Part shown: piece after piece, positions 115 through 11,820 of the stretch | Numbering within the stretch: the first letter of the stretch is position 1 | How the letters are laid out: each line of letters begins with the position of its first letter | Assembly (NCBI GenBank): GCA_016783995.1 | Contig: JADHVN010000038.1 | Coordinates: 1 to 11,820 of the forward strand | Origin: Actinomycetota bacterium | GTDB taxonomy: Bacteria; Actinomycetota; Humimicrobiia; Humimicrobiales; Humimicrobiaceae | Direction: 5' to 3' | DNA: 11,820 bases | The notes under the pieces: generated by a model | What the model saw: only the letters and a program-made list of their open reading frames with translations | What the model was told of the DNA's origin: nothing | Database searches by the model: none | Made by a program: the position numbers and the translations under genes

Positions 115-190
115 TTTCGCAGTATCTTAATAGTAGAGCAGTTGACTGTTAACTGAAATATTATAGGTTCGAGCCCAGTCCGAGGAGCTA
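115..190 (+). tRNA. Degenerate tRNA-Asn-like sequence (probable pseudo-tRNA)
   Basis: The 3' part reads GGTTCGAGCCCAGTCCGAG then GAGCTA, which closely follows the T-arm and acceptor end of bacterial tRNA-Asn. The middle holds GACTGTTAAC, an anticodon loop with GTT (Asn), and the D-arm region keeps TAGTAGAGC. The 5' acceptor strand (TTTCGCA) does not pair with CCGAGGA beyond one or two positions, the anticodon stem is broken by an extra base, one T-stem pair is A-A, and the terminal CCA reads CTA. It is therefore probably a decayed tRNA-Asn copy rather than a working gene. Its 3' end resembles the five repeats R1-R5 further right, so it may be the island's original attachment target or an old att copy. 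Confidence 0.5.
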
Positions 191-220
191 ACATTAATCC
201 CCACATGCACTGGCAGCTGA

Positions 221-440
221 CGGCTGCTTTGGCAAAGGCGGCTACTTTATGCTTCTCCTATTAATATAGATACTGAATCCCTTGGAAAACTCTTCATACA
301 CAAAATATTTAAGATGCTTCTGTCTAAGGGCCTCATTTCAGAAAGGATAATAGAATTAATGCTCTAGTGGGTGTTTGATAGTCAGGTGACCTTGAAGACA
401 TTCTATAAATTTAAATCGGACCATGCTCGAATCGCCCGGG
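221..440 (+). pseudogene. Possible IS91-type transposase fragment
   Basis: Reading in frame from 221 gives an open stretch with two stops (365-367 and near 443) that includes LGKLFIHKIFKMLLSKG, LISERIIELML and, after a TAG stop, W. This resembles the part of IS91/IS801-like transposases where a segment of the type HHKVFxMLxxxGxI...LLxW precedes a conserved HSGF motif. Here HSGF is absent and the frame is stopped. It has no start, no zinc-binding N-terminus and no catalytic tyrosine region, so it would be a short relic. The match is from memory of the family only and could be chance in an AT-rich stretch. Confidence 0.33.
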
Positions 441-441
441 C

Positions 442-493
442 TTAACATTTACCATATTTTATGGTATTATAATCATAAATTATGGTAAAGGAG
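442..493 (+). promoter_or_regulatory. Promoter, operator-like inverted repeat and RBS of the wHTH/nucleotidyltransferase operon
   Basis: TTAACA (442-447), a 17-bp spacer and TATTAT (465-470) form a plausible sigma70 promoter; TATAAT at 468-473 is an alternative -10. TTTACCATA (448-456) is mirrored by TATGGTAAA (481-489), and a nearer palindrome, ACCATA-TTT-TATGGT, lies at 451-465. AAAGGAG (487-493) is a good ribosome binding site 7 bases before the ATG at 501. The repeated arms flank the -10, as expected for autoregulation by the wHTH protein encoded next. The same arms precede abiEi at 4072. Confidence 0.55.
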
Positions 494-500
494 CAAAACT

Positions 501-830
501 ATGCTGGAACCTGTACTGGGCAACGGCACCATAGAAAGAATTTTATTTACACTTGAATCTTATGGACAGGCATATCCTACAGAGTTATCAAAGATGTTTA
601 ATATTCCGGTAAATGGAATTCAGCAGCAACTGGAACGTCTGGAGAATGGTGGGGTGGTGGTTAGTTCAATGGTTGGCAGAACCAGGTTATATCAGTTTAA
701 TCCGAGATATCCCTTTTTGAAAGAACTGAGAGCATTGATTCAAAGAGCAATGGAATTTCTGTCTAAAAAAGAAATGCAACAGTATTACAGGAGAAGAACA
801 AGACCGAGGAAGAAAGGTAAACCACTATGA
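501..830 (+). CDS. Winged-helix DNA-binding protein, partner of a nucleotidyltransferase
   Basis: This 109-residue protein has an N-terminal winged-helix fold of ArsR/MarR type at about residues 10-70. Helices read IERILFTLESYG, PTELSKMFNIPVNGIQQQLERLE (recognition part) and the wing VVVSSMVGRTRLYQFNP. The C-terminus is very basic (RRRTRPRKKGK). It starts 7 bases after AAAGGAG and overlaps the next gene by ATGA (827-830). Small wHTH proteins translationally coupled to AbiEii-like or MNT-like nucleotidyltransferases are a known gene arrangement, in which the wHTH member is thought to act as repressor or antitoxin. That role is inferred here. The inverted repeat over its promoter fits autoregulation. 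Confidence 0.7.
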   Translation: MLEPVLGNGTIERILFTLESYGQAYPTELSKMFNIPVNGIQQQLERLENGGVVVSSMVGRTRLYQFNPRYPFLKELRALIQRAMEFLSKKEMQQYYRRRTRPRKKGKPL

Positions 831-1384
831 ATTTAGATTGGCAAAAGGTGGGGATTAAAAAACTAGCAGCAATAATCTCTGCTCATTTGCAAAAGAACGG
901 TATTGAAGTTGTTCTGGTCGGCGGAGCCTGTGTTTCACTCTACTCCGACAATCAATATGTGTCCTATGATATTGACTTGATTACTGAAAGTTCCATCAGA
1001 AAAATAATTCCGGTGCTTGAGGAATTAGGATTTAAAAATACCGGAGGTCGTTTATTTGAAAATCCTCAGTGTAAATTTTTGATAGATTTTCCTGCCCCTC
1101 CTGTATCAATAGGAGATGAACCTATCTATAAGTTTAATAATTTAAAAACATGCTTTGGTACAATCTGTTTATTAACCCCAACAGATTGTATTAGAGACAG
1201 GCTGGCTGCTTATTTTTTCTGGAACGACCAGCAATCTTTAGACCAAGCAGTTATGGTAGCAAAAAGGAACAAAATCCATTTACTAGAAATAAAAGAATGG
1301 GCTGAAAAGCAAGGCAAAATAGAAAAGTATGAAGTTTTCAAGAAAAAATGCAGGGAAGAAGGTTTTAACACTAAAGCAAAGTAA
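827..1384 (+). CDS. Nucleotidyltransferase-fold protein (putative toxin of a type IV-like pair)
   Basis: The 185-residue protein carries the hallmarks of the nucleotidyltransferase superfamily: VLVGGACVSLY (GG at 32-33), then SYDIDLI giving the metal-binding pair D48 and D50, and FLIDFP (D87) as a likely third carboxylate. The later motif LTPTDCIRDRLAAYFFWND (117-135), followed by a region ending EIKEWAEKQGK, is typical of DUF6036/AbiEii-like small nucleotidyltransferases. It overlaps the wHTH gene by 4 bp, which implies coupled translation. Related enzymes transfer a nucleotide to RNA or protein; the target here is unknown. The stop codon at 1382-1384 directly abuts a minus-strand tRNA-like fragment. 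Whether the pair is a true TA system is inference. Confidence 0.7.
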   Translation: MNLDWQKVGIKKLAAIISAHLQKNGIEVVLVGGACVSLYSDNQYVSYDIDLITESSIRKIIPVLEELGFKNTGGRLFENPQCKFLIDFPAPPVSIGDEPIYKFNNLKTCFGTICLLTPTDCIRDRLAAYFFWNDQQSLDQAVMVAKRNKIHLLEIKEWAEKQGKIEKYEVFKKKCREEGFNTKAK

Positions 1385-1425
1385 TGGACCCAGCCGGATT
1401 TGAACCAGCAACCAACAGATTTTTT
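1385..1425 (-). tRNA. 3'-half tRNA-like fragment
   Basis: On the minus strand this reads AATCTGTTGGTTGC, then the T-arm GCTGG-TTCAAAT-CCGGC (complement of 1393-1409) with all five stem positions pairing (one G-T), then TGGGTCC and a discriminator A. No matching 5' acceptor strand, D-arm or clean anticodon stem follows, and no CCA is encoded. It is only a tRNA 3' half. It begins at the base after the nucleotidyltransferase stop codon, as an attachment-site remnant would. Confidence 0.35.
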
Positions 1426-1458
1426 AGGTTATGGTTTAAAAATATTTCCATAGATGAA

Positions 1459-1497
1459 ACAAGCCCCTTAGGGACTTGTCGATCGTAATCCACGATC
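1459..1497. repeat. Two adjacent small hairpins
   Basis: ACAAGCCC-CTTA-GGG(A)CTTGT at 1459-1479 forms a stem with one bulged A. Directly after it, GATCGT-AATCC-ACGATC at 1481-1497 is a perfect 6-bp stem with a 5-base loop. No T-run follows on either strand, so these are weak candidates for terminators. They sit in the gene-free stretch 1385-1828, which otherwise holds the tRNA fragment, repeat R1 and the hipB promoter. Confidence 0.35.
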
Positions 1498-1547
1498 CAT
1501 TAATAATATATAAAAAAACATATCTGTTGCCAACAAAAGAAATCTAA

Positions 1548-1579
1548 TTGTTATCAACATAGACCAGTCCGGGGAGCCA
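1548..1579 (+). repeat. Repeat R1: 32-bp tRNA-Asn-3'-end-like repeat
   Basis: R1 starts TTGTTATCAACATAGA and ends CCAGTCCGGGGAGCCA. It is the first of five copies in the same orientation (also 3902, 5621, 8393 and 9051). The 3' part imitates a tRNA-Asn 3' end with G discriminator and encoded CCA, while the 5' part resembles the anticodon-loop sequence of tRNA-Asn. A second shared block follows at 1602-1650 (CTACACAAACAAACGGGGA...) and recurs after R2 and, shortened, after R4. R1 lies between the nucleotidyltransferase module and hipBA. Confidence 0.8.
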
Positions 1580-1793
1580 ATCAATATAGGCTCTATAGGC
1601 TCTACACAAACAAACGGGGAAACCCATCTTAACAATATAAAGCCGGCTCTCAATTTATACTTTAGAGATCCAGCAGATTCTTAAATTTCTAATAATATAG
1701 CGGATTTGATACATAAAATTGATAATTTTGGTCTAATGAAATATTATAGCTACATTAATTAGATAGAATGTTATTTATATAATATAAAATTTA

Positions 1794-1818
1794 TGCTACA
1801 ATATTAGCCAATATGGAG
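1794..1818 (+). promoter_or_regulatory. Extended -10 promoter and RBS of hipBA
   Basis: TG at 1794-1795, one base, then TACAAT (1797-1802) makes an extended -10 element with no good -35. ATATT-AGCC-AATAT (1801-1814) is a short inverted repeat beside the expected transcription start and could be a HipB operator. GGAG (1815-1818) lies 10 bases before the ATG at 1829. Confidence 0.4.
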
Positions 1819-1828
1819 CTTAATGTAA

Positions 1829-2176
1829 ATGAAAGGCTATGTTATGGATTGGTATGGAATGTCAGATAAAGCAGTAATTAGGGATATTGGAAAAAGAATA
1901 AAGCAGATGAGATTAAATAAGAATATTTCCCAGAAGGCTTTATCTGAAAAAATCGGAATACACAGGGTGACATTAAGTAAAATTGAGAGAGGTCAAAAAA
2001 TATCTCTTCTGACTCTCATTCAAATAATGCGGGGACTTGGAGAATTGCAAAGACTGGAAAATATTATACCGAAAGAAATAATAAGCCCTTTGCAACTGGC
2101 TAAACTTCAGGGGAAAAAAAGAAAAAGAGCCTCAAAACAGACTGAAGCTCAGGAAGAGAAAGAACCGGAATGGTAG
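1829..2176 (+). CDS. hipB: HipB-like antitoxin / Xre-family repressor
   Basis: A 115-residue protein with a Xre/HTH_3 domain at about residues 18-75: IGKRIKQMRLNKNISQKALS, then the recognition region IHRVTLSKIERGQK (44-57), and a basic, charged tail (GKKRKRASKQ...). In HipBA systems HipB binds operator DNA, neutralises the HipA kinase and represses the operon. The gene overlaps hipA by 7 bp (2170-2176), so the two are translationally coupled. The start is uncertain: ATG 1829 has GGAG 10 bases upstream, while ATG 1844 has AAAGG 7 bases upstream and would give a protein starting MDWYGMSDK. The HTH is unaffected by this choice. Confidence 0.85.
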   Translation: MKGYVMDWYGMSDKAVIRDIGKRIKQMRLNKNISQKALSEKIGIHRVTLSKIERGQKISLLTLIQIMRGLGELQRLENIIPKEIISPLQLAKLQGKKRKRASKQTEAQEEKEPEW

Positions 2177-3465
2177 CATTTATTAATATTTGGAACAGAA
2201 GAGTAGGAGCAGTTTCCTGGGATGAGGAAAGAAGACTGGCTACAATGGAGTTCGATGAAAACTTTATCAAGGAGGGGATAGATTTATCTCCAATAATAAT
2301 GCCGTTGAGTAAACTGATCAAAGGTAATAGGATCTATTCTTTTGAAAATCTTCCGGAAATAACATATAAAGGATTACCGGGCCTTTTAGCAGACTCTCTT
2401 CCAGACAGGTATGGAAACAGATTAATCAATGAGTGGCTTGCAATACAGGGAAGGTCAGAAGAAGACTTTAGCACGGTTGACAGGTTATGTTATATCGGAA
2501 AAAGAGGGATGGGGGCACTTGAATATGAACCGGCAATCCTTGGAAAAGAAGATAGATCTGAATCAATCAATATAGAGGAATTGGCAGAACTGGCCAGACA
2601 TGTATTAAATGAAAGAAAAAAATTAAATCCACGTTCCCGGATCAGTGATAAAAATACTCTAAACGAAATTATAAGAGTAGGTACTTCTGCAGGTGGAGCA
2701 AGGGCTAAAGCTGTGATTGCAATAAATAACCAGACAGGTGGAATTCGTTCGGGGCAAGTAGATGTTCCGGAAGGTTTTGAGCATTGGATCTTAAAGTTTG
2801 ATGGAATAAAGGATAATCAATTAGGGGAACCTGCAGGATATGGAAGGGTTGAATATGCTTATCACAAAATGGCAAAAGATGCAGGAATAAATATGGAAGA
2901 ATGCAGGCTTATAGAAGAGAACAGTAGAGCACATTTTATGACAAAACGGTTCGATAGAAAACCGGGAAATGAAAGAATTCATATGCAAACGCTATGTGCC
3001 ATTGCTCATTTTGATTATAATGATCCTAATTCATATTCATATGAGCAATTATTCCAGATTATACGAAAAATAAGATTACCCTATGCGGATGCCCGGGAAA
3101 TATATAGAAGGATAGTATTTAATATAGCAGGGAAAAATCTTGATGACCACACAAAAAATATCTCTTTTCTTTTAAGAGAAAACCAATCCTGGAGATTATC
3201 TCCAGCATATGATCTTATTTATAACCACAATCCAGAAGGAAAGTGGACTAGAAGACACCAGATGTCAGTTAATGGAAAGAGGGAGAATATTAGTTATAAT
3301 GATTTAATTACTCTGGGTAATGAAAACAGTATTAAGTCCCCAAAAGAAATAATAGAACAGGTATTGGAAGTTCTAAATAATTGGAAAAAATATGCAAAGG
3401 ATATTGGCCTGGAAAAGAGGAGAATAGAAGAGATAAATAAAAACATGGAATTGAATATAAAATAA
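2170..3465 (+). CDS. hipA: HipA-family serine/threonine kinase toxin
   Basis: At 431 residues this is full length for the family (E. coli HipA has 440). The N-terminal HipA_N-like subdomain spans about 5-110. The kinase core shows the glycine-rich GTSAGGARAKAVIAI (171-185), the ATP-binding lysine in HWILKFD (K209), FMTKRFDR (256-263), the catalytic segment GKNLDDHTKNISFL (321-334; D325, D326, H327, N330) and the metal-binding LSPAYDL (D348). All key positions are intact, so it is probably active. HipA enzymes phosphorylate aminoacyl-tRNA synthetases such as GltX and arrest translation; the target of this one cannot be read from sequence. The start overlaps the end of hipB (ATGGTAG). Confidence 0.92.
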   Translation: MVAFINIWNRRVGAVSWDEERRLATMEFDENFIKEGIDLSPIIMPLSKLIKGNRIYSFENLPEITYKGLPGLLADSLPDRYGNRLINEWLAIQGRSEEDFSTVDRLCYIGKRGMGALEYEPAILGKEDRSESINIEELAELARHVLNERKKLNPRSRISDKNTLNEIIRVGTSAGGARAKAVIAINNQTGGIRSGQVDVPEGFEHWILKFDGIKDNQLGEPAGYGRVEYAYHKMAKDAGINMEECRLIEENSRAHFMTKRFDRKPGNERIHMQTLCAIAHFDYNDPNSYSYEQLFQIIRKIRLPYADAREIYRRIVFNIAGKNLDDHTKNISFLLRENQSWRLSPAYDLIYNHNPEGKWTRRHQMSVNGKRENISYNDLITLGNENSIKSPKEIIEQVLEVLNNWKKYAKDIGLEKRRIEEINKNMELNIK

Positions 3466-3475
3466 TCCTTACATG

Positions 3476-3747
3476 TAAGAATTATTTCAGTACGAAGATC
3501 AAGGAAGGAGGAGGTTGATATATATGAAAGCTCGTGAGTTTGATAAGAAATTTGATGAAAGCAAAGATATTTCAAAATACCTTGATGCACCAAAGGCGAG
3601 AAGGCCCAAACAGGAATAAAAGAGAGTCAATGTAGATTTCTCTTTGTTGATGATCAATTTATTGGATAAAGAGGCAAAACGATTAGGTGTGCCCGGCAGT
3701 CCATTATTAAAGTATAGATAGCAGAGCGTCTTGAAAAGATATCTTGA
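3476..3747 (+). pseudogene. Decayed brnT 3' end and brnA pseudogene
   Basis: From 3476 the sequence repeats the end of the intact brnT and all of brnA found at 8697-8971. It shares AGAATTATTTCAGTAC, a GGAAGGAGGAGG ribosome site and ATGAAAGCTCGTGAGTTTGA (ATG at 3524). The brnA frame stops at codon 32, where CAA of the intact copy is TAA. It then has a one-base loss (CCACGG to CCCGG) and a TGG-to-TAG change, before ending at the matching TGA (3745-3747). The front of brnT is missing. The homology continues past the gene through the AAAATAAAACTCTCC flank to repeat R2. It is a truncated, mutated duplicate of the brnTA cassette, sitting just after hipA. Confidence 0.88.
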
Positions 3748-3901
3748 AAATATCTGATGCTATATAGTAGAGGAATCTAAAATTATCTATAAGTTAGATA
3801 GTACAATTAATAAATAGCAAAATAAAACTCTCCTTAAAAATATCCGATTTTTTAAATGTAGAATTTAACAGATTATATTCAAAATAAGGGTACAATGTAA
3901 T

Positions 3902-3933
3902 TTGTTATCAACATCGTCCAGTCCGGGGAGCCA
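3902..3933 (+). repeat. Repeat R2: tRNA-Asn-3'-end-like repeat
   Basis: This copy differs from the consensus by CATCGTCCAG in place of CATCGACCAG. The sequence before it (ACAATGTAAT) is shared with R5, extending the homology leftwards. After it, a short ATGATTCAAAC stretch matches the block after R3 and R5, and CTACACCAACAAACAGGG (3957 on) matches the block after R1, so R2 combines both classes of downstream flank. Apart from R2, the stretch 3466-4071 holds the brnA pseudogene and the abiEi promoter. Confidence 0.8.
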
Positions 3934-4040
3934 AATTTGATGATTCAAACTCAGTTCTACACCAACAAACAGGGCAACCAATTCTAACTACAAAGATACT
4001 TATCTAAGGGCTTGTAAAAAATAATATTTAGTGTAATATA

Positions 4041-4078
4041 TTACCATATAATAATTATAATATATTATATTATGGTAA
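4041..4078 (+). promoter_or_regulatory. Promoter/operator overlapping the abiEi start codon
   Basis: TTACCATA (4041-4048) is mirrored by TATGGTAA (4071-4078), and the ATG of abiEi (4072) lies inside the right arm. TATAAT occurs at 4047-4052 and 4056-4061 between the arms; no strong -35 is visible. No ribosome binding site precedes the ATG, so transcripts from either -10 would be leaderless or nearly so. AbiEi proteins repress their own promoters through inverted repeats, which fits. The arm-to-arm distance is 30 bp, against 32 bp for the same arms before the wHTH gene at 501. Confidence 0.55.
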
Positions 4079-4851
4079 ATAAAAGCACTATTTTGTCAAA
4101 AAAGGATTTAAAACTATTAGAAAATGCAATTCTAAGTCATGGAAGAATTTTAAATTCCAGTCAGTTAAAAAATATCTTCAGCAAAGATTATTCATTAGGG
4201 GAGGTAAACAACCGTGTTTCCTTACTGGCTAAAATAGGTTGGCTGCTTAGAATAAAAAAAGGATTATATGTAATAGTTACTGACTTTAGCACTCTTGGTT
4301 TTAATGATTTATCCATATACTTGATTGTTAAAGCCTTAAATGAAAATTCTTATATCTCATTTGAAAGTGCCTTACAACATCATGGAATTTTTGACCAGAT
4401 GCTGTCTGCTGTAGAATCAGTTACTTTTGAAAGAGCAAGAAAATATAAATTTCAAGATACGAAAATAAATTTCCTAAGTATTAAAAAAAAGCTTTATTTC
4501 GGGTTGTCTAGTGAACGTATAGAATCTGATTTTGTAAATATTGCTGATATAGAGAAAGCCATTTTAGATATGCTTTATTTTAGAAAAAATTCTTACAATA
4601 TAAGCTTAATCTGGGAAAAACTAAATGAATACAAGAGGGATTTTGATTTTAAGAAATTAATAAGATATGCAAAAAGATTCAATGATACTATTGTTAGGCA
4701 AGTTGGATTCCTGCTTGATAAGCTTGGAATCGAGACAGAGGATTTATATCAAATAATTAAAGGAAAGAATAGCTACAGCATAATGACAAATAATTCTAAT
4801 CAATTTAATAGTAAGTGGAGACTGTATTATGACCATAAGATTATTAAATAA
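4072..4851 (+). CDS. abiEi: AbiEi-family type IV antitoxin / transcriptional repressor
   Basis: A 259-residue protein with the AbiEi layout: an N-terminal winged helix (about 10-70, ending IKKGLYVIVTD), then the family segment SYISFESALQHHGIFDQ (93-109), a TFERARKYKF strand, ADIEKAILDMLYF (158-170) and a helical C-terminus. AbiEi binds DNA to repress the operon and counteracts AbiEii without binding it directly (type IV TA). The gene overlaps abiEii by 23 bp. The ATG has no ribosome site and falls inside the operator arm, so leaderless translation is likely. The repressor may still be functional although its toxin partner is frameshifted. Confidence 0.88.
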   Translation: MVNKSTILSKKDLKLLENAILSHGRILNSSQLKNIFSKDYSLGEVNNRVSLLAKIGWLLRIKKGLYVIVTDFSTLGFNDLSIYLIVKALNENSYISFESALQHHGIFDQMLSAVESVTFERARKYKFQDTKINFLSIKKKLYFGLSSERIESDFVNIADIEKAILDMLYFRKNSYNISLIWEKLNEYKRDFDFKKLIRYAKRFNDTIVRQVGFLLDKLGIETEDLYQIIKGKNSYSIMTNNSNQFNSKWRLYYDHKIIK

Positions 4852-5600
4852 ACAACAATTAAGTTTGATTAATAAAAATACTTTAAAATATAGATTAGCT
4901 GAGGCTGAAAAAGATTATTTTTTAGCTATTGTATTAAATTACATCTATAATTCTAATTTAAAGGATAAACTTGTTTTTAAGGGAGGAACAGCTCTTTATC
5001 ATTGTTACTTACCTCAGTTCCGGTTTTCCGAGGATCTTGATTTTACCTCAACAGTTAAAGATATTACTTTAAAAAAATATAGTGGACGTCTTGAAACTTG
5101 AAGATTTTCTGGAAGTAAAAAAGCATTATGTTTCAAATAAAACCTTAAAAATTGAAAAATTGAAATATCAAGGCCCACTTGATATGCCAAATTCACTAAA
5201 AGTGGAAATTGATTTTACTCAAAATATTGTTCTTACTCCCACAGAAATGGAATATAAAAATTTTTGGAAAGTTAAAACAGAATTAAAAGTTATGGATATA
5301 AGAGAGATTAGTGCTGAAAAAATTAGAGCAATGAGTGATAGAGCAAGATATAGAGATTTTTATGATCAGTATATGATTTTGAAAAATTATGATATTAAAT
5401 TGGATGAAATTATTAATCTAGTCGAGCAAAAAGAAATAAGGGAGCCAATAAGTCCAGCATCGATTTTATCAAATTGGGAGATTGCTAAAGAAGAGAAATC
5501 AAAAGATCTGCTAAGAGTTTATTATAAAGAGGTTATATCAGATACCAATATTGAAAAGATGCTAAAAAAGTTATCATTTAGTACGATTATTGTAAAATAA
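4829..5600 (+). pseudogene. abiEii: AbiEii nucleotidyltransferase toxin, frameshifted at an A7 run
   Basis: The first frame (4829-5101) carries VFKGGTALYHCY (GG at 52-53) and RFSEDLDFT (D69, D71), the nucleotidyltransferase core of AbiEii. It then hits TGA. The next frame resumes at once with KLKYQGPLDMPNSLKVEIDF, AEKIRAMSDRARYRDFYD and a normal C-terminus ending at 5600. Dropping one A from the seven at 5071-5077 fuses them as ITLKNIVDVLKLEDF into 256 residues, normal for the family. The break may be a true mutation, a sequencing error in a homopolymer, or a transcriptional slippage site. AbiEii enzymes use GTP or other NTPs, in some members to add nucleotides to tRNA and stop growth. As read, the toxin is truncated and probably inactive. 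Confidence 0.85.
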
Positions 5601-5620
5601 TGCTGTAAATATTTTGCGAA

Positions 5621-5652
5621 TTGTTATCAACATTGACCAGCCCGGGGAGCCA
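5621..5652 (+). repeat. Repeat R3: tRNA-Asn-3'-end-like repeat
   Basis: R3 starts 20 bases after the abiEii stop and carries CATTGACCAGCCCGGGGAGCCA instead of CATCGACCAGTCCGGGG... at two positions. It is followed by a flank (5653 to about 5745) closely related to the flank of R5, including ATTCAAACCAATATCA and TTTCTGCCAGCGTTTTCC. Confidence 0.8.
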
Positions 5653-5714
5653 ATCTGTATTATTCAAACCAATATCAGGTATTCCCGGGTCTTTATCAGA
5701 ATTATTCATATCTG

Positions 5715-5758
5715 AATTTCTGCCAGCGTTTTCCTTCGCCCAGCCGCTGGCAGAAATT
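5715..5758. repeat. Perfect 14-bp inverted repeat in the R3 flank
   Basis: AATTTCTGCCAGCG (5715-5728) is mirrored exactly by CGCTGGCAGAAATT (5745-5758) around a 16-base loop. The matching flank of R5 keeps the left arm (AATTTCCGCCAGCG, from about 9145) but its right arm has decayed. No T-run follows directly, so it is not a classic terminator for abiE, though it could act as one. The rest of 5760-5880 shows nothing I can assign. Confidence 0.7.
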
Positions 5759-5886
5759 TGGTGGTCTGCGCTTTCAAGCTCCTGATAAACAAATTTTAGA
5801 TAAAATAAAAAACCTAATTTTATATTATAAGTAAGAGAATAATCTGGTAAAATGTAATTAGTTTAATTTTGATTCTGATAATTTTC

Positions 5887-5914
5887 TTGATAAAAGATCC
5901 AGGCTGTATAAAAT
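5887..5914 (+). promoter_or_regulatory. Promoter of the DUF6557/DUF7309 pair
   Basis: TTGATA (5887-5892), a 16-bp spacer and TAAAAT (5909-5914), the latter preceded by TGTA, give a good promoter. The predicted start near 5921 leaves about 27 bases of leader before the ATG at 5948. Confidence 0.45.
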
Positions 5915-5947
5915 AGAAAGCTGATCTTTATTTTTTATGGTGACAAA

Positions 5948-6547
5948 ATGATTTTTAAAGAGTTAATAAATACTGTAAATTACAATTATATGTGGGCTGT
6001 GCTTGATAAGGAATACAATCATAAAGATGGCGCTTACGAAGCTTATAAAAGGGTAATTGAAGAATTAAAGACACTCAAACCCAGATCCTGCAAACCACCG
6101 ATTACCCTTATTGTGGCAAAAATAGAGGATTGCATTGAGCCAGGTACATCTATTTTTGATGTGTTTGGTATAATAAAGGGTGATAAAAACCATTATGCAC
6201 TTGAGATGACATCCTGGGATGAATGGCTAAATTTTAATGTTTTAGATAAATGTATTGAAGTTTACGGAAATGCAGATGTAACGGCCTATTCTTTGTACGA
6301 GATGACATTCTTCGGGTATTCCAAAAAAACTGTGGATGAAAGAGTTAAACAGGAAAAACGAATATTGGACAAAAGTATCAAAGAAATAGAAAGCGGCACC
6401 TCTCAATTAATTTCATTTGAAGAAGCTATGGCCAAAATAGGTTTTATTGATAAACGAACTCCCATGGAAAAAGAAAAAGAATGCAGGGAGTATTGGCGGA
6501 TTACTGCCATGAATGAAAAGATTTATAAAATGTTACTGGGAAGATGA
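5948..6547 (+). CDS. DUF6557-like protein of unknown function
   Basis: A 199-residue soluble protein. MIFKELINTVNYNYMWAVL at the start, a YKRVIEELKTLKP helix (33-45), YALEMTSWDEWLNFNV (83-98) and VTAYSLYEMTFFGYS (111-125) match my memory of the DUF6557 pattern (MTFKEL...V..., W-E-W-L-x-M, CLWEMTFFGF). The C-terminal third (130-199) is charged and helical and appears additional. There is no signal peptide or membrane segment. The gene is followed after 36 bases by the DUF7309-like gene on the same strand, so the two probably form an operon. Their position between TA modules suggests, but does not show, an accessory or defence-type role. Confidence 0.6.
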   Translation: MIFKELINTVNYNYMWAVLDKEYNHKDGAYEAYKRVIEELKTLKPRSCKPPITLIVAKIEDCIEPGTSIFDVFGIIKGDKNHYALEMTSWDEWLNFNVLDKCIEVYGNADVTAYSLYEMTFFGYSKKTVDERVKQEKRILDKSIKEIESGTSQLISFEEAMAKIGFIDKRTPMEKEKECREYWRITAMNEKIYKMLLGR

Positions 6548-6583
6548 ATTAGTAGAATTTATCAAGACGGGGATGCATAAACC

Positions 6584-7627
6584 ATGAATGAGAAAATCCC
6601 AACAGCTTCAAAATTAAAAAAATTATATGATCTGGCTCTAAAATTCAAAGGAATCAGATGCTGGGAATACATGGAAGATACTGATATATTCGGAGTCATG
6701 AGACCCGGGGATGGTCTGATCGGCTATGTCTGCATCCTTGGAAATGCCGGAGAAGTTTTTGGAATAAATGCATATCTTGGCCCCAGGGGTCTAGATGGAT
6801 ATCTTAAGGTACTTTCTGGTGAGATATACAAAGAAAGTTTAGAAATGATGTCTTCCCAGTATTGTTTATCATTGACATATGAGGAAGATGAATCTTACCT
6901 TGATAAAAAGGATAAATCAGTATTAAAAGAACTTTGTATAGATTCTAAGAGTAAAAATGCATTGCCGTTTTTCAGGACATATATTCCAGGTTATTATCCC
7001 TGGTATTTAACTGAAGATGAAGTAGAATTTTTTGAGATTATCCTGGAACAATCTATTGATGTATGTAAGAGATTTAAACATGAAAGAAATCTTTTTGAAA
7101 CAGATAAGGGTAGCTATTATTTTGTGAGGGTGCCTTTTAAAAGCAATAATAGTACTTTGTGGAAGGATAAATTTATAGAAGCAGAACCTTATAAAAAAAA
7201 ATGGGAAGATGCCCAGATAAATGAAGTTAAATTGAAAAAGATCTTGAAGAGATACCCTCAAAGAAAAGGATTGTGGGAAATCGGCTGCGATTTTTTTCCG
7301 TTACGTATTAAGGACGGTAAATCAAGACCATATATGCCGCTTGTATTTCTGGGGATAGATGCTACGACAGGGGAAATCCTGGGGCATAGTGTATCCAGTT
7401 TGAGAAAGCAAAACCTGCTTGTAGCCGAGGAGATACTAAACCTGGTAGGAAAGCTTAATACTATTCCTGAGACTTTGATCGTAAGTAACAGGAATTTAAA
7501 GAAAATATTAACTCCATTGTCAGAAAGACTTGATTTTACCATTAGATTTAAGAGAAATCCTATCTATTATGAGGAAGCTGCAAATTCTATGATAGGCTTT
7601 TTAAACAGCGGACCCCAGAGTAATTAA
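6584..7627 (+). CDS. DUF7309/DUF6930-like protein of unknown function
   Basis: A 347-residue protein. The N-terminal half (about 11-170) has CWEYMEDTDIFGVMRPGDG, IGYVCILGNAGEVFGINAYL and GPRGLDGYLKVLSGE, which I recognise as the DUF7309 type, followed by PFFRTYIPGYYPWYLTEDE (128-146). The C-terminal part (about 228-335: GLWEIGCDFFPL, PYMPLVFLGIDATTGEILGH, ETLIVSNRNLKKIL, LDFTIRFKR) looks like the DUF6930 domain that usually follows. No catalytic motif is evident. A GGGGA ribosome site lies about 10 bases before the ATG. It is probably cotranscribed with the DUF6557-like gene. The stop codon lies within an inverted repeat at 7619-7639. Confidence 0.6.
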   Translation: MNEKIPTASKLKKLYDLALKFKGIRCWEYMEDTDIFGVMRPGDGLIGYVCILGNAGEVFGINAYLGPRGLDGYLKVLSGEIYKESLEMMSSQYCLSLTYEEDESYLDKKDKSVLKELCIDSKSKNALPFFRTYIPGYYPWYLTEDEVEFFEIILEQSIDVCKRFKHERNLFETDKGSYYFVRVPFKSNNSTLWKDKFIEAEPYKKKWEDAQINEVKLKKILKRYPQRKGLWEIGCDFFPLRIKDGKSRPYMPLVFLGIDATTGEILGHSVSSLRKQNLLVAEEILNLVGKLNTIPETLIVSNRNLKKILTPLSERLDFTIRFKRNPIYYEEAANSMIGFLNSGPQSN

Positions 7628-7639
7628 TCATTAATTACT
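7619..7639. terminator. AT-rich inverted repeat over the stop codon at 7627
   Basis: AGTAATTAA (7619-7627) and TTAATTACT (7631-7639) pair perfectly around TCA. The convergent hicB ends about 46 bases away. The stem is AT-only apart from the end G-C pair and lacks a following T-run, so a terminator role is weakly supported. Confidence 0.3.
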
Positions 7640-7685
7640 TCATAAAAATATACAGGATCTGGATTATTAAACGATGCACACAAGA

Positions 7686-8018
7686 TCAGGATATTTTTGA
7701 TAAAATATACTGGTTAACAGATACTCCTTCTTCTGCTGATTTTATTGATAAATTCCTATGCACCTCAGCAGGTACTCGTAATGTTAAATTCCCTTTATAT
7801 CTTTTTAACCCAAAGGGCTCAGGTATTTCTTCATTTTCTTCTTGCATCCATGCTATTGCTTCTTCAACAACTTTTTCAATCTCTTTTAATGCATGTTCAA
7901 TCGTATTCCCATGTGCAGCTAATGATGGAAATTCAAGACATCTGGCAATATGTAATTGATCTTCCTCTGACCACTCTACTCTATAAGTATATTTTTCAAT
8001 TATTTTATGACTTTTCAT
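7686..8018 (-). CDS. hicB: HicB-family antitoxin with ribbon-helix-helix C-terminus
   Basis: A 110-residue protein. Residues 10-60 form the partly degenerate RNase-H-like HicB fold (YRVEWSEEDQLHIARCLEFP, then LAAHGNTIEHALKEIEKVVEEA). Residues 77-110 (NLTLRVPAEVHRNLSIKSAE, then EGVSVNQYILSKIS) are an Arc-type ribbon-helix-helix DNA-binding end. HicB neutralises HicA and represses the operon. It overlaps hicA by 14 bp (8005-8018), with hicA upstream, the usual order for this class. GAAGGTG lies just before its ATG inside hicA, allowing separate translation. This is the only clearly minus-strand module in the window, convergent with the DUF7309 gene. Confidence 0.92.
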   Translation of the reverse strand: MKSHKIIEKYTYRVEWSEEDQLHIARCLEFPSLAAHGNTIEHALKEIEKVVEEAIAWMQEENEEIPEPFGLKRYKGNLTLRVPAEVHRNLSIKSAEEGVSVNQYILSKIS

Positions 8019-8241
8019 TTTTCACCTTCAATTTTTCTAATGCTTTTAATACAAGCTTTACTTGATATGGCTTAGCCATTTTCCCTTCTTTTTGTATATT
8101 TATTCTAGGATCACCTTTCCACGGTGTTTTAAAAATGTGATGGCTGCTCTTTATTCTTGGGTTCCCAAAATATTTCGTGCATATTTTTTGTAAATCATCA
8201 AATTTAACATTTTTCGGATTAGACAGCTCATCTTTTTCCAT
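8005..8241 (-). CDS. hicA: HicA-family mRNA interferase toxin
   Basis: A 78-residue double-stranded-RNA-binding-fold toxin. KFDDLQKICTKYFGNP, then SSHHIFKTPWKGDPRINIQ (32-50) with catalytic histidine H34 in the G/S-S-H-x-x-F motif, then KMAKPYQVKLVLKALEKL (54-71), are the family signature. HicA cleaves mRNA and tmRNA independently of the ribosome. It is slightly longer at the N-terminus than the shortest members. The ATG lies 7 bases after the predicted -10 box with no ribosome site, so the transcript is probably leaderless. Confidence 0.92.
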   Translation of the reverse strand: MEKDELSNPKNVKFDDLQKICTKYFGNPRIKSSHHIFKTPWKGDPRINIQKEGKMAKPYQVKLVLKALEKLKVKNEKS

Positions 8242-8248
8242 GTATTAA

Positions 8249-8277
8249 ATGATAGCTTATAAGCTATCATATGTCAA
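8249..8277 (-). promoter_or_regulatory. hicAB promoter with a perfect 22-bp palindrome
   Basis: On the minus strand, TTGACA (complement of 8272-8277), a 17-bp spacer and TATCAT (8249-8254) form a near-consensus promoter. The plus-strand sequence 8249-8270, ATGATAGCTTA followed by its exact reverse complement, is a 22-bp palindrome filling the spacer and -10. It is the obvious operator for HicB. Transcription should begin at or within a few bases of the hicA ATG (8241). Confidence 0.8.
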
Positions 8278-8392
8278 TAAATCCTTTTATTTGAATGAGT
8301 GAATGAATGATTGTTTGAGTTTTTATCGGATTTTCTAATAGGGGAAAATATTATTCATAACCGATAATGAAATATGAATATTATAAGATTTT

Positions 8393-8424
8393 TTATTATC
8401 AACATCGACTAGTCCGGGGAGCCA
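8393..8424 (+). repeat. Repeat R4: tRNA-Asn-3'-end-like repeat
   Basis: R4 reads TTATTATCAACATCGACTAG then TCCGGGGAGCCA, with two changes from R5. The next bases (CTTAATACAACATAAAGCGACTC, written here as CTTAATACAAC then ATAAAGCGACTC) match the far end of the R1 flank, so the middle of the R1-type flank is deleted here. It separates the hicAB promoter from the brnTA promoter. Confidence 0.75.
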
Positions 8425-8459
8425 CCTTAATACAACATAAAGCGACTCTTAATTTTAAA

Positions 8460-8496
8460 TTGACTAAAGGTATATATAAGGTATAATAATTATACC
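8460..8496 (+). promoter_or_regulatory. brnTA promoter with palindrome touching the ATG
   Basis: TTGACT (8460-8465), a 16-bp spacer and TATAAT (8482-8487) form a strong promoter. GGTATAAT-A-ATTATACC (8480-8496) is a perfect palindrome that covers the -10 and ends at the base before the brnT ATG (8497). No ribosome site is present and the start of transcription should fall within about 0-5 bases of the ATG. BrnA, a ribbon-helix-helix protein, is the expected repressor. Confidence 0.75.
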
Positions 8497-8760
8497 ATGG
8501 AATTTGAGTTCGATCATAAGAAAAGTGAAATCAATGAGCAGAAACACGGTATTGATTTTTTTAAGGCTCAGGAATTATGGGATGATGCAGACTTTATTGA
8601 GATTCCTGTAAAAACCAGTGATGAACCAAGATTTACGGTAACCGGAAAGATTTCAGGAAAGTATTGGTCGGGAGTTATTACATATCGTAACGAAAAGATA
8701 AGAATTATTTCAGTACGGCGATCCAGGAAGGAGGAGATTGATATATATGAAAGCTCGTGA
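8497..8760 (+). CDS. brnT: BrnT-family ribonuclease toxin
   Basis: The 87-residue protein has the BrnT (DUF497) pattern: FEFDHKKSEINEQKHGIDF at the N-terminus, AQELWDD, EPRFTVTGKISGKYWSGVIT and the C-terminal IRIISVRRSRKEEIDIYES. BrnT is a RelE-like ribosome-independent RNase. The family's basic and acidic active-site positions appear present. It precedes the antitoxin gene, the usual order for brnTA, and overlaps brnA by 14 bp. The transcript is probably leaderless. A damaged relative of this cassette lies at 3476-3747. Confidence 0.92.
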   Translation: MEFEFDHKKSEINEQKHGIDFFKAQELWDDADFIEIPVKTSDEPRFTVTGKISGKYWSGVITYRNEKIRIISVRRSRKEEIDIYESS

Positions 8761-8971
8761 GTTTGATAAGAAATTTGATGAAAATAAAGATATTTCAAAA
8801 TACCTTGATATATCAAAGGCGATAAGGCCAGGACTGGAACAAAGAAGAGTCAATGTAGATTTCCCTTTATGGATGATCGATTTATTGGATAAAGAAGCAA
8901 AACGGTTAGGTATACCACGGCAGTCTATTATTAAAGTCTGGGTAGCAGAGCGTCTTGAAAAGGTATCTTGA
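8747..8971 (+). CDS. brnA: BrnA-family ribbon-helix-helix antitoxin
   Basis: From ATG 8747 the product has 74 residues. The first half (MKAREFDKKFDENKDISKYL) wraps the toxin in the known family; the second (RRVNVDFPLWMIDLLDKEA, then KRLGIPRQSIIKVWVAERL) is a ribbon-helix-helix DNA-binding domain. I chose ATG 8747 over the in-frame TTG at 8738 because GGAAGGAGGAG (8726-8736) is 10 bases from the ATG but only 1-3 bases from the TTG, and because the pseudogene copy keeps the same ATG. It overlaps brnT by 14 bp. Confidence 0.9.
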   Translation: MKAREFDKKFDENKDISKYLDISKAIRPGLEQRRVNVDFPLWMIDLLDKEAKRLGIPRQSIIKVWVAERLEKVS

Positions 8972-9050
8972 AAATATCTGATGCTAAATTTTTCAATAAA
9001 TTAGATAAAATAATTAGCAAAATAAAACTCTCCTCTTAAAACAATGTAAT

Positions 9051-9082
9051 TTGTTATCAACATCGACCAGTCCGGGGAGCCA
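9051..9082 (+). repeat. Repeat R5: tRNA-Asn-3'-end-like repeat
   Basis: R5 carries the consensus form, starting TTGTTATCAACATCGA and ending CCAGTCCGGGGAGCCA. It is preceded by ACAATGTAAT, as at R2. Its flank begins AACTGTACGATTCGAACC, in which GATTCGAACC is the reverse complement of a tRNA T-loop, and then follows the R3 flank to about 9175. It ends the brnTA cassette. The rest of 8972-9276 holds AT-rich DNA with two overlapping TATAAT boxes (9200-9210) that may drive the next gene. Confidence 0.8.
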
Positions 9083-9276
9083 AACTGTACGATTCGAACC
9101 AAAATCAAGTGTTCTTGGATCCTTCCTAGAGCTATTCATTTCTAAATTTCCGCCAGCGTGTTCCTCCGCCCGGTTATTGGAATAATATATAGAATCATTT
9201 ATAATATAATTCAATCGTATATCACTTATAAATATATGCAAATTAAAAGGCCAGACTAATTATATGGGAGGTGTAA

Positions 9277-10119
9277 ATGAGTAAAAACCATATAGATTTA
9301 GCAGTTCTTGCTGTAAGAGATAATGCAGCTAATTGTAAAATATTAAAAACAAATGAAAAAATAATATTAAGATTGTCCTCATATCAACTTTTTAAGATAG
9401 TACCCGGGGGAATTGCCACTATTGACCCGAAGAAACAATGGGAATTTGGTAATAATACATATATATCCGGTAAGCTCATCAACCACCGTATTGATATACC
9501 TGCTCTGGGTTTGACCCCGCTTAAGTTGGAAAAATTTGATTATTGGGATCCCCGGGAAGCATTCGAAGAAGAATGGGATGAGTACGATGAAATTATTGAA
9601 GAAACAGATGAATACTATAAGGCTATTATTCAAGCAGGCAAAAGACCCTGCTACGAGATGGAGCAAATAGTTCCGGGTGATACAGATCTGAATGCAGATG
9701 GACCAATACTTGATGCAATATATTATAAAGATATTGGTGAGATAGGTACAGCTCAAGATATTTTAATGGATGAGCTTATTGTGGATTTAAGATGTCTTGA
9801 TGCGCATGCACACCTGGGTAATTTTATGATTGATAGCTGGCCTAAAAAAGCACTTCTTCATTACAATGTAGGTATGAAAATAGGAGAATTGTCCCTAACT
9901 GAGGATTTTAATGAAGTACTCTTGTGGGCACATCTTGATAATAGGCCATTTTTTAGGTGTCTGCATGGATATGGGCTATGCCTCTGGAAACTTGAACGCT
10001 TTAAGGAGGCTGAAAAAATATTTGAGCGCATGCTCTGGTTAAATCCACCGGATAATCAGGGTGCCCGTTTTACTATTTATCTGGTAAAAGATAAAAAACC
10101 CTGGAGAGAAGACTATTAA
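9277..10119 (+). CDS. TPR-like protein of unknown function
   Basis: A 280-residue soluble protein starting 5 bases after GGGAGG (9266-9271). Residues 1-85 are beta-rich (IILRLSSYQLFKIVPGGIAT). Residues 95-115 are strongly acidic (EEEWDEYDEIIEETDEYY). The C-terminal half has tetratricopeptide-like helix pairs at about 176-205 (DAHAHLGNF...ALLHYNVGMKIGE) and 225-265 (GYGLCLWKLERFKEAEKIFE, then MLWLNPPDNQGAR). The LNPxDNQG ending is also seen in ST7-like and other bacterial TPR proteins. I do not know a function; TPRs usually mediate protein contacts. It lies to the right of the last repeat and is followed after 60 bases by the RQC-like gene. Confidence 0.65.
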   Translation: MSKNHIDLAVLAVRDNAANCKILKTNEKIILRLSSYQLFKIVPGGIATIDPKKQWEFGNNTYISGKLINHRIDIPALGLTPLKLEKFDYWDPREAFEEEWDEYDEIIEETDEYYKAIIQAGKRPCYEMEQIVPGDTDLNADGPILDAIYYKDIGEIGTAQDILMDELIVDLRCLDAHAHLGNFMIDSWPKKALLHYNVGMKIGELSLTEDFNEVLLWAHLDNRPFFRCLHGYGLCLWKLERFKEAEKIFERMLWLNPPDNQGARFTIYLVKDKKPWREDY

Positions 10120-10179
10120 TGCTACAGCAATACTATTTTATTTAAAACAATAGCAATAGATATTAGTAGTAATATTAAA

Positions 10180-10755
10180 ATGAGTAAAAAAGTAATAAGA
10201 GTTTCTGTTGATCTGCACCCTCAGAAATCAGGTCCATTATTAAATGAAGAAATTAAAGCAATTTTAAGAGGAGCTGATGATTTAATAATGGAAGGGGGAC
10301 GGAGTCTTCTAGCTAAAATATTGAAAGGATCTAGAGATAAAACTATATTAGAAAAAGGTCTTAAAAATAATCCTGTATATGGATATTATAAAGGCCTATT
10401 AATATATGAAATTACTTCAAAAATAGATTGGTTAATTATTAATAGATATTTGGAAATTGAATATAGCTACAGGCTCCCCATGCTTATATATGGTCCAAAG
10501 GGATGGGAAATAGAAAAAGATACTTATACAGATGAACTCCTTGCTGGATTTGATAAATTAATTGAGAGTGGAATAAATAGTTTCAATATGCTCTACTTGA
10601 AAGATAGAGCCAGAGATATGATAATGCTGCTTCTAGATAAAATTCAAGCAAGAGGAGATATTAAATACATACCAATTCTTGAAGCATGGAGGAAGATAGA
10701 TTATCAGAAAGTTAGAGTTCGTATTAATTCTGTTATTAGAGATATTTCTAAATAA
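10180..10755 (+). CDS. RQC-minor-1-like DNA-binding protein
   Basis: A 191-residue protein. Residues about 22-115 look like a stand-alone RQC winged helix, the DNA-binding domain otherwise found in RecQ helicases: GRSLLAKILKGSRDKTILEK, NPVYGYYKGLLIYEITSKID, then LEIEYSYRLPMLIYGPKGWE. The rest (MIMLLLDKIQARGDIKYIPI, LEAWRKIDYQKVRVRINSVI) is helical and repeat-like. It resembles proteins named RQC-minor-1, described as stand-alone RQC domains in conflict-type loci. That naming is from memory. There is no helicase domain. No ribosome site precedes the ATG (AATATTAAAATG). The gene probably depends on upstream transcription or its own weak promoter. Confidence 0.65.
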   Translation: MSKKVIRVSVDLHPQKSGPLLNEEIKAILRGADDLIMEGGRSLLAKILKGSRDKTILEKGLKNNPVYGYYKGLLIYEITSKIDWLIINRYLEIEYSYRLPMLIYGPKGWEIEKDTYTDELLAGFDKLIESGINSFNMLYLKDRARDMIMLLLDKIQARGDIKYIPILEAWRKIDYQKVRVRINSVIRDISK

Positions 10756-10815
10756 TTAAACGAGAGAAAATTATAATCTTAAAACATTTCCTTTTTTCTA
10801 AATTTATAATTAGCG

Positions 10816-10821
10816 TATAAT
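10816..10821 (+). promoter_or_regulatory. Possible -10 box for the CGCC protein
   Basis: TATAAT follows TTAGCG; no clear -35 is seen. A start near 10828 would leave a leader of about 60 bases before the ATG at 10888. Confidence 0.3.
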
Positions 10822-10887
10822 AGTAAAAGAGGAAAATCGTTGCTAAGATTTGTAACTGGAATTAAAAACAAGTAAGAAATAGATAAT

Positions 10888-11160
10888 ATGAAAATATCAA
10901 AGAGAAAAAATAAATTGTACAATACCGAACGCTTTGGACAACCCGAAATAAGAGTATATCATAAAAAGGGCTCAGGCAAGAAATCACCCCGGTATCTTCT
11001 AAAATGTGGTTGTTGTAATGAAAAGTTAGAAATATACTACGGCAATATGGGACTTGAAATTAATGGTGTAAATGGTTCAATAGAGGATTGGCGCGAGATT
11101 CTGCTTCCACTGTTATACCTCGATAACCCCCTAATCGCACATAACACAAATAATGTTTAA
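10888..11160 (+). CDS. Small CGCC-motif protein of unknown function
   Basis: A 90-residue protein with a basic N-terminus (MKISKRKNKLYNTERFG), then RYLLKCGCCNEKLEIYYG with C40, C42 and C43, then LEINGVNGSIEDWREILLPL. I recall similar unnamed bacterial proteins with the order YNTERFGQP...YLLKCGCC...LEIYY...GVNGS.ENWREILLPLL. The cysteine cluster has no second CxxC pair, so a complete zinc ribbon would require dimerisation. The gene is probably real because of that conserved pattern; its ribosome site is weak. The function is unknown. Confidence 0.6.
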   Translation: MKISKRKNKLYNTERFGQPEIRVYHKKGSGKKSPRYLLKCGCCNEKLEIYYGNMGLEINGVNGSIEDWREILLPLLYLDNPLIAHNTNNV

Positions 11161-11369
11161 ACAATGTATCCCTATTGCCTAAAAATCTGAACGAAAGCCT
11201 ATACGTTGCCTACCACCATCATCAGATAAATATATAAATAATCTTTAAGGAACTTGTAGCTGATTACCATTCTTTATTATTAAAATATGCTACAATATAA
11301 ATACAATTTCAATCAAAGAGAAATGTTTAAAATTATTTATATATACTTAAAAAACGCAGAGGTGCTGAT
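11161..11369. promoter_or_regulatory. Intergenic region with extended -10 promoter of the MNT/HEPN operon
   Basis: TG (11288-11289), one base, then TACAAT (11291-11296) is an extended -10; the 12 bases TATGCTACAATA are identical to those at the hipBA promoter (1793 on). AGAGGT (11358-11363) is a ribosome site 6 bases before the ATG at 11370. The remainder shows nothing I can assign. Confidence 0.4.
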
Positions 11370-11693: not shown

Positions 11694-11820
11694 TATAAAA
11701 GAAGCACAGGAATGGCAAAGGCTTGCTGCCCTGGATTTAAGAACAGCGGAATACCTGCTGAATATGAGCCCTCTTCCAATAGAAATTATTTGTTATCACT
11801 GCCAGCAATCAGCGGAAAAA
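11686..11820 (+). CDS. HEPN-domain protein, 5' end only
   Basis: The frame from ATG 11686 is open to the window edge (45 codons). It reads MVNIKEAQEWQRLAALDLRT, then AEYLLNMSPLPIEIICYHCQ and QSAEK. The A..DL..AEYLL and I-x-CYHCQQSAEK patterns are the first two helices of HEPN domains of the PF05168 type. The RNase motif R-x4-6-H would lie beyond the window. Its start overlaps the end of the MNT gene by 8 bp, so it is translated from the same message. It is the likely toxin of the pair. Confidence 0.8.
   Translation, partial: MVNIKEAQEWQRLAALDLRTAEYLLNMSPLPIEIICYHCQQSAEK

What the first reader, a model, noticed from the sequence alone, without database searches (positions are those of the whole stretch)
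1548..9082. Five direct 32-bp repeats that resemble the 3' end of tRNA-Asn separate the TA modules
Copies at 1548, 3902, 5621, 8393 and 9051 share length and orientation and fall between modules, never inside a gene. The last 16 bases, CCAGTCCGGGGAGCCA, match a tRNA-Asn 3' end. From memory, the Yersinia HPI att core at asn-tRNA is CCAGTCAGAGGAGCCAA, a very close match. The first part (TTGTTATC-AACAT) resembles the tRNA-Asn anticodon loop. The island may have grown by serial integration, or be a set of cassettes exchanged by recombination between these sites. I know of no described TA-cassette system using truncated tRNA copies this way.
Basis: partly seen in the sequence, partly recalled or inferred. 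Interest (0 to 1): 0.78.

Follow-up and report, generated by a model that had tools for sequence, protein, structure and literature searches.

The report
tRNA-Asn cassette array, serine-recombinase sites
The five repeats look like landing scars of a DNA-inserting enzyme (a serine recombinase) that targets the end of a tRNA gene, and they separate small swappable gene cassettes that occur in other orders in related uncultured bacteria, with the same scar in other phyla.

Summary
In detail: five same-strand 32-mers, none in 200 shuffles. The reading is partly right: the sites are attachment sites with a tRNA-Asn 3' end, and units between them shuffle. Wrong: the first half of the repeat is not an anticodon loop, and the recombinase is not of the implied HPI (tyrosine) type. 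That half (TGTTATCAACATCG) recurs inverted directly after tRNA-Asn at 5 of 5 held loci of one large serine recombinase (LSR) family (intact in two Omnitrophota genomes, truncated or decayed in three actinobacterial ones) and at 0 of 36 other LSR loci; it is most likely the recombinase's own half-site. I hold 67 sites in 19 genomes plus the window; 36 site pairs share only one neighbour, 1 shares both, 1 is mixed, so the junction is the site. Nearest published: Dehalococcoides ssrA islands and SCC. Different: target, site, units down to 0.66 kb, spread over phyla. That the LSR itself moves the cassettes is inferred: 15 of 19 site-bearing genomes (mostly drafts) show no family LSR, and no genome is held for the window.

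The parts
117..190 (+). decayed tRNA-Asn (GTT) at the head of the array; ARAGORN does not call it
   Evidence: alignment to tRNA-Asn genes, score 50 vs random maximum 20; ends CCAGTCCGAGGAGCTA; no tRNA called
191..1579 (+). unit c1: winged-HTH-like (501-830) + nucleotidyltransferase-like (827-1384), ends with site 1
   Evidence: the unit cut at 192 matches G005:C48 from its first to its last base at 91%; it follows a tRNA 3' fragment there and a Y-site in G013; Pfam matches weak, below curated cut-offs
1548..1579 (+). site 1 (half-site Y + tRNA-Asn 3' end)
1580..3933 (+). unit c2: HipB-like HTH (1829-2176) and HipA (2170-3465), followed by a decayed copy of the BrnT/BrnA tail (3476-3765), ends with site 2
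   Evidence: Pfam HipA_C 4.9e-54, HTH_3 1.8e-13; repeats D1/D4 89-92% to 8699-8989
3902..3933 (+). site 2
3934..5652 (+). unit c3: AbiEi (4072-4851) and an AbiEii split over two overlapping frames (4829-5101, 5082-5600), ends with site 3
   Evidence: Pfam, PADLOC
5621..5652 (+). site 3
5653..8424 (+). unit c4: DUF6557 (5948-6547), DUF7309+DUF6930 (6584-7627), HicB (7686-8018, - strand) and a small ORF (8005-8241, - strand; HicA by position only, no family match), ends with site 4
   Evidence: Pfam; about 90% match of most of it to G377:C214
8393..8424 (+). site 4
8425..9082 (+). unit c5: BrnT toxin (8497-8760) / BrnA antitoxin (8738-8971), ends with site 5; 658 bp
   Evidence: Pfam, NCBIfam; 94% match of its last 438 bp to G010:C68, whose contig ends there
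9051..9082 (+). site 5
9083..11820 (+). unit c6 and beyond (no further site before the window ends): weakly TPR-like, RQC-domain and Polbeta nucleotidyltransferase genes
   Evidence: Pfam; 90% match of part to G005:C48

Best explanation
The repeats are attR-type attachment sites of a large serine recombinase whose chromosomal target (attB) is the 3' end of tRNA-Asn. Each site is the element's half-site Y (TGTTATCAACATCG) joined to about 18 bases of tRNA-Asn 3' end, with the likely crossover at the central AG of GGGGAGCCA. The window is an array without an integrase of its own behind a decayed tRNA-Asn: each unit starts right after the CCA and ends with its site. Shown: the sites, their orientation and spread, unit boundaries at the sites, exchange of neighbours, and the link between inverted Y, tRNA-Asn and one LSR family. 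Inferred: that this LSR made the sites by attP (Y-core-Y') x attB (tRNA) recombination, and that the LSR in trans (with its 45-aa neighbour protein as directionality factor) excises and inserts units, as an integron integrase does with cassettes. That toxin-antitoxin cargo stabilises such arrays is a guess from superintegrons (recalled).
For: Inverted Y directly follows tRNA-Asn at 5 of 5 held loci of the LSR family (G007 100%, G475 76%, G033 66% and N-terminally truncated, decayed G014 60% and G013 71%). G475 and G033 were found by protein search and only then checked for tRNA-Asn and inverted Y. 0 of 36 other LSR loci (at most 38% identity) show the junction, although 4 of them have a tRNA-Asn called in the stretch. 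G475 has tRNA-Asn, inverted Y, LSR, then Y-sites in one 1.55-Mb contig. Y-core-Y' is a 53-bp quasi-palindrome. The LSR has Resolvase, Recombinase and Zn-ribbon domains, best NCBIfam model CcrB, below cut-off. Neighbour exchange: 27 upstream-only and 9 downstream-only pairs against 1 both and 1 mixed (pairs are not independent). All 15 multi-site loci have one orientation. Unit c1 is conserved end to end but follows three kinds of left neighbour. Four genomes share the 300 bp upstream of tRNA-Asn (pairwise scores 227-273) and diverge right after it, except the two with the LSR remnant.
Against: No genome or recombinase is held for the window itself. Only 2 of 19 site-bearing genomes hold an intact family LSR and 2 a decayed one; 15 show none, though most are drafts of unknown completeness. 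G033 has the LSR and tRNA.Y' but no Y-site at up to 3 mismatches. If elements with Y-core-Y' simply stacked, internal junctions should read Y-core-Y'; only 1 of 67 does, against 0.79 expected from shuffles. The right halves are poorly conserved: 10 of 67 carry a T-arm-like GATTCGAAC, shuffles 0.9. In G007 and G475 other genes lie between tRNA.Y' and the LSR. No reads were available, so circles or excision could not be looked for.
Confidence: 0.72

Rival explanations
1. The sites were laid down by the serine recombinase long ago, but the shuffling of units now comes from host homologous recombination between the near-identical 31-mers, flanks and neighbouring cassettes. The arrays are fossils, not an active cassette system.
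For: 15 of 19 site-bearing genomes have no detectable family LSR; the four G006 sites carry the same 28-base match; LSRs are usually one-way without a directionality factor (recalled); decayed LSRs and a decayed tRNA occur.
Against: 25 of 31 site columns are at least 92% identical over 67 sites (sites were selected at up to 7 mismatches) between genomes of different phyla; breaks fall at the site even when neighbours share nothing else.
Confidence: 0.35
2. A P4/HPI-type tyrosine integrase uses tRNA-Asn and makes the repeats, as the first reader supposed from the HPI core.
Against: PF00589 hits lie in no array of 14 genomes; the nearest intact ones on a tRNA-Asn or site contig are about 16 kb (G003:C41), 26 kb (G007:C12) and 53 kb (G011) away; G006 holds only two Xer-like proteins and one fragment. 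Y is not explained by tRNA identity.
Confidence: 0.06
3. These are integron cassettes with attC sites.
For: Small gene units, one orientation, exchangeable, rich in toxin-antitoxin genes.
Against: The integron-integrase model passes its cut-off in 1 of 20 genomes, on a contig without a listed site (G002:C525; site on C440); the sites end in a tRNA 3' end and are linked to tRNA-Asn.
Confidence: 0.01
4. A passive dispersed repeat unrelated to site-specific recombination.
For: Several copies per genome on different contigs.
Against: Uniform orientation in 15 of 15 multi-site loci, breakpoints at the site, inverted arm tied to one LSR family.
Confidence: 0.02

Closest known systems
Dehalococcoides ssrA-specific genomic islands (DsiB/DsiA; McMurdie et al. 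2011, PMC3146451; abstract, section 5 and found passages read)
   Same: Tandem units downstream of an RNA gene, bounded by a direct repeat of the RNA 3' end; a CcrB-like serine recombinase on the reverse strand next to attL; a short conserved non-RNA motif just upstream of the repeat; 15 of 31 islands lack the integration module.
   Different: Target is tmRNA (ssrA), not tRNA-Asn; a 20-bp repeat with a different 15-bp motif; described in one genus plus one deep-sea fosmid; a six-gene module. Here: an LSR with a 45-aa partner ORF (not compared with DsiB by sequence), units down to 0.66 kb, several phyla, shuffled cassettes.
SCC / composite SCC islands of staphylococci (CcrA/B/C)
   Same: Serine recombinases, tandem elements separated by att repeats (recalled; search listing only); CcrB is the best-scoring NCBIfam model of the G007 LSR.
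   Different: LSR scores 180.8 against a CcrB cut-off of 900; the SCC target is rlmH and SCC elements are large (recalled).
Integron / superintegron cassette arrays
   Same: Works like: small units with a conserved 3' site, one orientation, exchangeable, toxin-antitoxin cargo (integron side recalled).
   Different: No IntI over cut-off on an array contig; the site is a serine-recombinase type tRNA junction; the anchor is tRNA-Asn.
Yersinia HPI and tycheposons (tRNA-targeting tyrosine recombinase elements)
   Same: tRNA 3' end as integration site (recalled; tycheposon seen only as a search listing).
   Different: Tyrosine, not serine, recombinase (recalled).

Membership tests
Large serine recombinase (the enzyme proposed) | Resolvase catalytic, Recombinase and zinc-ribbon domains in one about 500-aa protein | tested here: met
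   PF00239 2.3e-30, PF07508 1.9e-29, PF13408 1e-14 in G007; R8 and S10 invariant over 14 aligned rows (13 homologues and the query; P0001 is identical to it; their catalytic role is recalled)
Large serine recombinase (the enzyme proposed) | Distinct quasi-symmetric attP and attB sharing a short core | tested here: inconclusive
   Y-core-Y' 53-bp quasi-palindrome, 13-14 of 14 arm bases at 5 loci; attB symmetry is weak and neither was tested for recombination
Dehalococcoides ssrA-GI (Dsi) | Integration at ssrA with its 20-bp repeat | tested here: not met
   Repeat and flanking gene are tRNA-Asn
Dehalococcoides ssrA-GI (Dsi) | Six-gene integration module with second small serine recombinase | tested here: inconclusive
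   Not seen by ORF reading beside the LSR in G007; no domain scan of all neighbours
SCC | CcrA/B/C above curated cut-offs | tested here: not met
   CcrB 180.8 vs 900, CcrC 126.5 vs 900, CcrA 71.1 vs 700
Integron | IntI integrase next to the array | tested here: not met
   1 of 20 genomes over the cut-off, not on a contig with a listed site
Integron | attC recombination site | not tested
   No attC model was run; the core does not fit the recalled attC consensus by eye
HPI-like tRNA-Asn island | P4-type tyrosine integrase beside tRNA-Asn att | tested here: not met
   PF00589 search of 14 genomes: no intact hit within 15 kb of a listed site or tRNA-Asn; one fragment 7 kb from tRNA-Asn in G006
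This tRNA-Asn Y-site system | Recombinase gene shown in the window's own genome | not testable with these tools
   No genome held

The most novel reading that the evidence does not exclude
A serine-recombinase counterpart of the integron: one dedicated recombinase family, anchored at tRNA-Asn and helped by a conserved 45-aa protein, excises and inserts sub-kilobase to few-kilobase gene cassettes at Y-core sites in either a tRNA-Asn or an existing array, and the same site grammar lets cassettes be shared among bacteria of different phyla in the subsurface.
Probability: 0.33. Interest if true: 0.86.

Novelty: new variant of a known kind. Interest (0 to 1): 0.62.

Why it matters
Integrons are the textbook cassette system and depend on a tyrosine recombinase. 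An array of small cassettes tied to a serine recombinase, with a nearly invariant site in uncultured Omnitrophota, Aerophobetes and actinobacterial genomes, would give a second route for collecting toxin-antitoxin, defence and metabolic genes, and a compact, testable recombinase with predicted attP and attB.

Tried and rejected
Anticodon-loop origin of the first half: rejected, because that sequence appears inverted after tRNA-Asn genes. Tyrosine integrase: PF00589 over 14 genomes, none near arrays. Integron. All LSRs equal: rejected. My first control used flanks of only 1.5 kb for many loci and would have missed G475, whose junction lies 2 kb from the LSR; I therefore refetched up to 5 kb each side where the contig allowed and rescanned: 0 of 36 other loci have the junction. 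One further hit, a 130-aa LSR fragment in G003:C18, was not examined; several control stretches are cut by contig ends. Three of the 36 hold a Y-like arm at up to 2 of 14 mismatches: G010:C68 (true Y-sites; its LSR appears to sit in a cpaF-like gene, read by eye) and single weak hits in L231 and L241. Rfam on the window: nothing. Viral contigs: no Y-site and no LSR relative. Plasmids: no near match to the window; the 34-mer in phages and plasmids gave only partial matches. The class search gave the same three hits. Unexplained: in G006 and more weakly in G011 a site is followed by a copy of the tRNA-Asn downstream flank.

Papers: ten searches used; only PMC3146451 was opened. That this tRNA-Asn system is not in print rests and the open-licence library only.
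Full report
OBSERVATION. The window holds five + strand copies of a 32-mer, TT(G/A)TTATCAACAT-N-G-W-C-Y-AG-Y-CCGGGGAGCCA, at the stated coordinates. 200 shuffles give none, and allowing 10 mismatches adds none. A decayed tRNA-Asn at 117-190 precedes the first unit. Units closed by a site are 658 bp to 2.8 kb. Their genes are HTH + nucleotidyltransferase-like (weak matches), HipBA, AbiEi/AbiEii, DUF6557 + DUF7309/DUF6930 + HicB, BrnT/BrnA, then weakly TPR-like, RQC and Polbeta genes.

SPREAD. An exact scan of the collection of 84,980 species genomes with a degenerate 24-base core gave 20 stretches in 14 metagenome-assembled genomes, labelled Aerophobetes, Omnitrophota, Actinobacteria/Hydromicrobium, Eisenbacteria, Desulfobacteraceae and Lokiarchaeota. 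The last two rest on contigs of 3.7 and 3.1 kb and may be binning errors; the Eisenbacteria site is divergent (7 mismatches to the 31-mer). Whole-genome search of these 14 gave 47 sites and 0 for the reversed control pattern. A search of 396 genomes of the phylum of G014 found 10 with sites, four of them new: G223, G254, G265, G377. In the stretches I hold there are 67 distinct sites at up to 7 mismatches to a 31-mer, in 19 genomes plus the window. Genomes were mostly picked by the site, so these are not frequencies.

TRNA LINK. Where tRNA-Asn and a site share a contig at short range (7 genomes: G007, G009, G012, G013, G014, G265, G475) the site is 0.8-10 kb downstream in the same orientation. 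Two more share a contig at long range: G006 (326 kb; a run of Ns interrupts a similar CcdA-like gene at both places, so the scaffold may be misjoined) and G011 (0.9 Mb, opposite strand). G003, G005 and G010 have tRNA-Asn on a contig without a listed site; G001, G002, G004 and G008 gave no tRNA-Asn by the pattern. In G223, G254 and G377 only the fetched stretches were looked at. All 15 loci with two or more sites have one orientation.

CASSETTE BEHAVIOUR. Comparing 300 bp on either side of the 67 sites, with similarity starting within 12 bp of the site, 27 pairs share the upstream side only, 9 the downstream side only, 1 pair shares both and 1 is mixed; 30 of the 36 one-sided pairs are between genomes. 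Many pairs belong to a few cassette groups and are not independent. The window's unit c1 matches G005 over its whole length at 91%. There it follows a tRNA-Asn 3' fragment, in G013 a Y-site, and in the window a decayed tRNA-Asn. Most of c4, the last 438 bp of c5 and parts of c6 have 88-94% relatives in G377, G010 and G005. At tRNA-Asn itself, G012, G013, G014 and G265 share the 300 bp upstream (pairwise scores 227-273) but not downstream (8-13), apart from G013 and G014 (101), which both carry an LSR remnant.

THE RECOMBINASE. In G007 tRNA-Asn is followed by ACATACCCCAATGTTGATAACA, whose last 14 bases are the inverse of the site's left arm. A 515-aa serine recombinase lies antisense 1.3 kb on, and a Y-site at 10 kb. 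The protein search scored a capped set of candidates and listed 120 of 976 homologues; 74 are 56-100% identical and the other 46 are 39-45%, which looks like a discrete family. Searching it in 18 genomes gave decayed copies 60% and 71% identical within about 500 bases of tRNA-Asn in G014 and G013. Two more members, G475 (76%) and G033 (66%, N-terminally truncated), were found by protein alone; both proved to sit beside tRNA-Asn followed by inverted Y. In G475 the tRNA-Asn is interrupted by a group I intron. So 5 of 5 held members show the junction. Of 37 other LSR hits I examined 36, with up to about 5 kb each side where the contig allowed: 0 of 36 show it, though 4 have a tRNA-Asn called in the stretch. 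A 45-aa ORF lies at the LSR 3' end in G007, G475 and G033, and beside the LSR remnant in G013 and, degraded, in G014. I propose it as a directionality factor; that is a guess from position.

MECHANISM. Shown: site, boundaries, exchange, LSR link. Inferred: attP = Y-core-Y' (53 bp), attB = tRNA-Asn 3' end with its flank, crossover at AG, array sites = attR. Unexplained: internal junctions almost never read Y-core-Y' (1 of 67), so simple stacking of whole elements does not explain the arrays; and 15 of 19 site genomes lack a detectable family LSR. Either cassettes move as circles bearing Y plus their own left end, or homologous recombination reshuffles old scars.

KNOWN SYSTEMS. Dehalococcoides ssrA islands are architecturally closest: tandem units behind an RNA gene, a CcrB-like serine recombinase on the reverse strand next to attL, a conserved non-RNA motif upstream of the repeat, and 15 of 31 islands without integration genes (PMC3146451: abstract, section 5, passages). 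The present system differs in target, site, unit size and host range; the two recombinases were not compared by sequence. The SCC recombinase models score well below cut-off; integron integrase over cut-off was not found on array contigs. Hence: a new variant of a known kind.

Noticed in passing
L186 3234-3432 (-), genome G475: Group I intron (RF00028, 82.5 bits) inside the tRNA-Asn that anchors the LSR element.
   Followed up: partly
L109 7793 (G003:C41), L133 about 7560 (G003:C68), L129 about 7611 (G005:C124), L127 about 3289 (G013:C184): Other serine recombinases (26-31% identical to the G007 type) lying at or next to a tRNA-Asn-like 3' end, in G003:C41, G003:C68 and G013:C184 overlapping it; tRNA-Asn is a hotspot for several LSR lineages.
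   Followed up: partly
window 3476-3765 and 8699-8989: Unit c2 ends in a decayed copy of the BrnT/BrnA unit c5, suggesting two units fused by loss of a site.
   Followed up: no
window 5718-5758; L020 about 1065-1015 (-): A hairpin-like motif (TTTCTGCCAGCG...CTGGCAGAAAT) recurs about 100 bases after some sites in the actinobacterial group (read by eye).
   Followed up: no
window 191-410; L020 about 2640-1930 (-); L098 9035-9514: Remains of a transposase-like gene (IS91-like by eye) near the first unit in these three arrays.
   Followed up: no
window 4829-5600: AbiEii is split over two overlapping frames; described only.
   Followed up: no
L094 3013-4136 and L095 about 6130-6542 (G006); L185 10960-12083 (G475): A similar thioredoxin-like + CcdA-like cassette occurs at different array positions in two Omnitrophota genomes (read by eye).
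   Followed up: no
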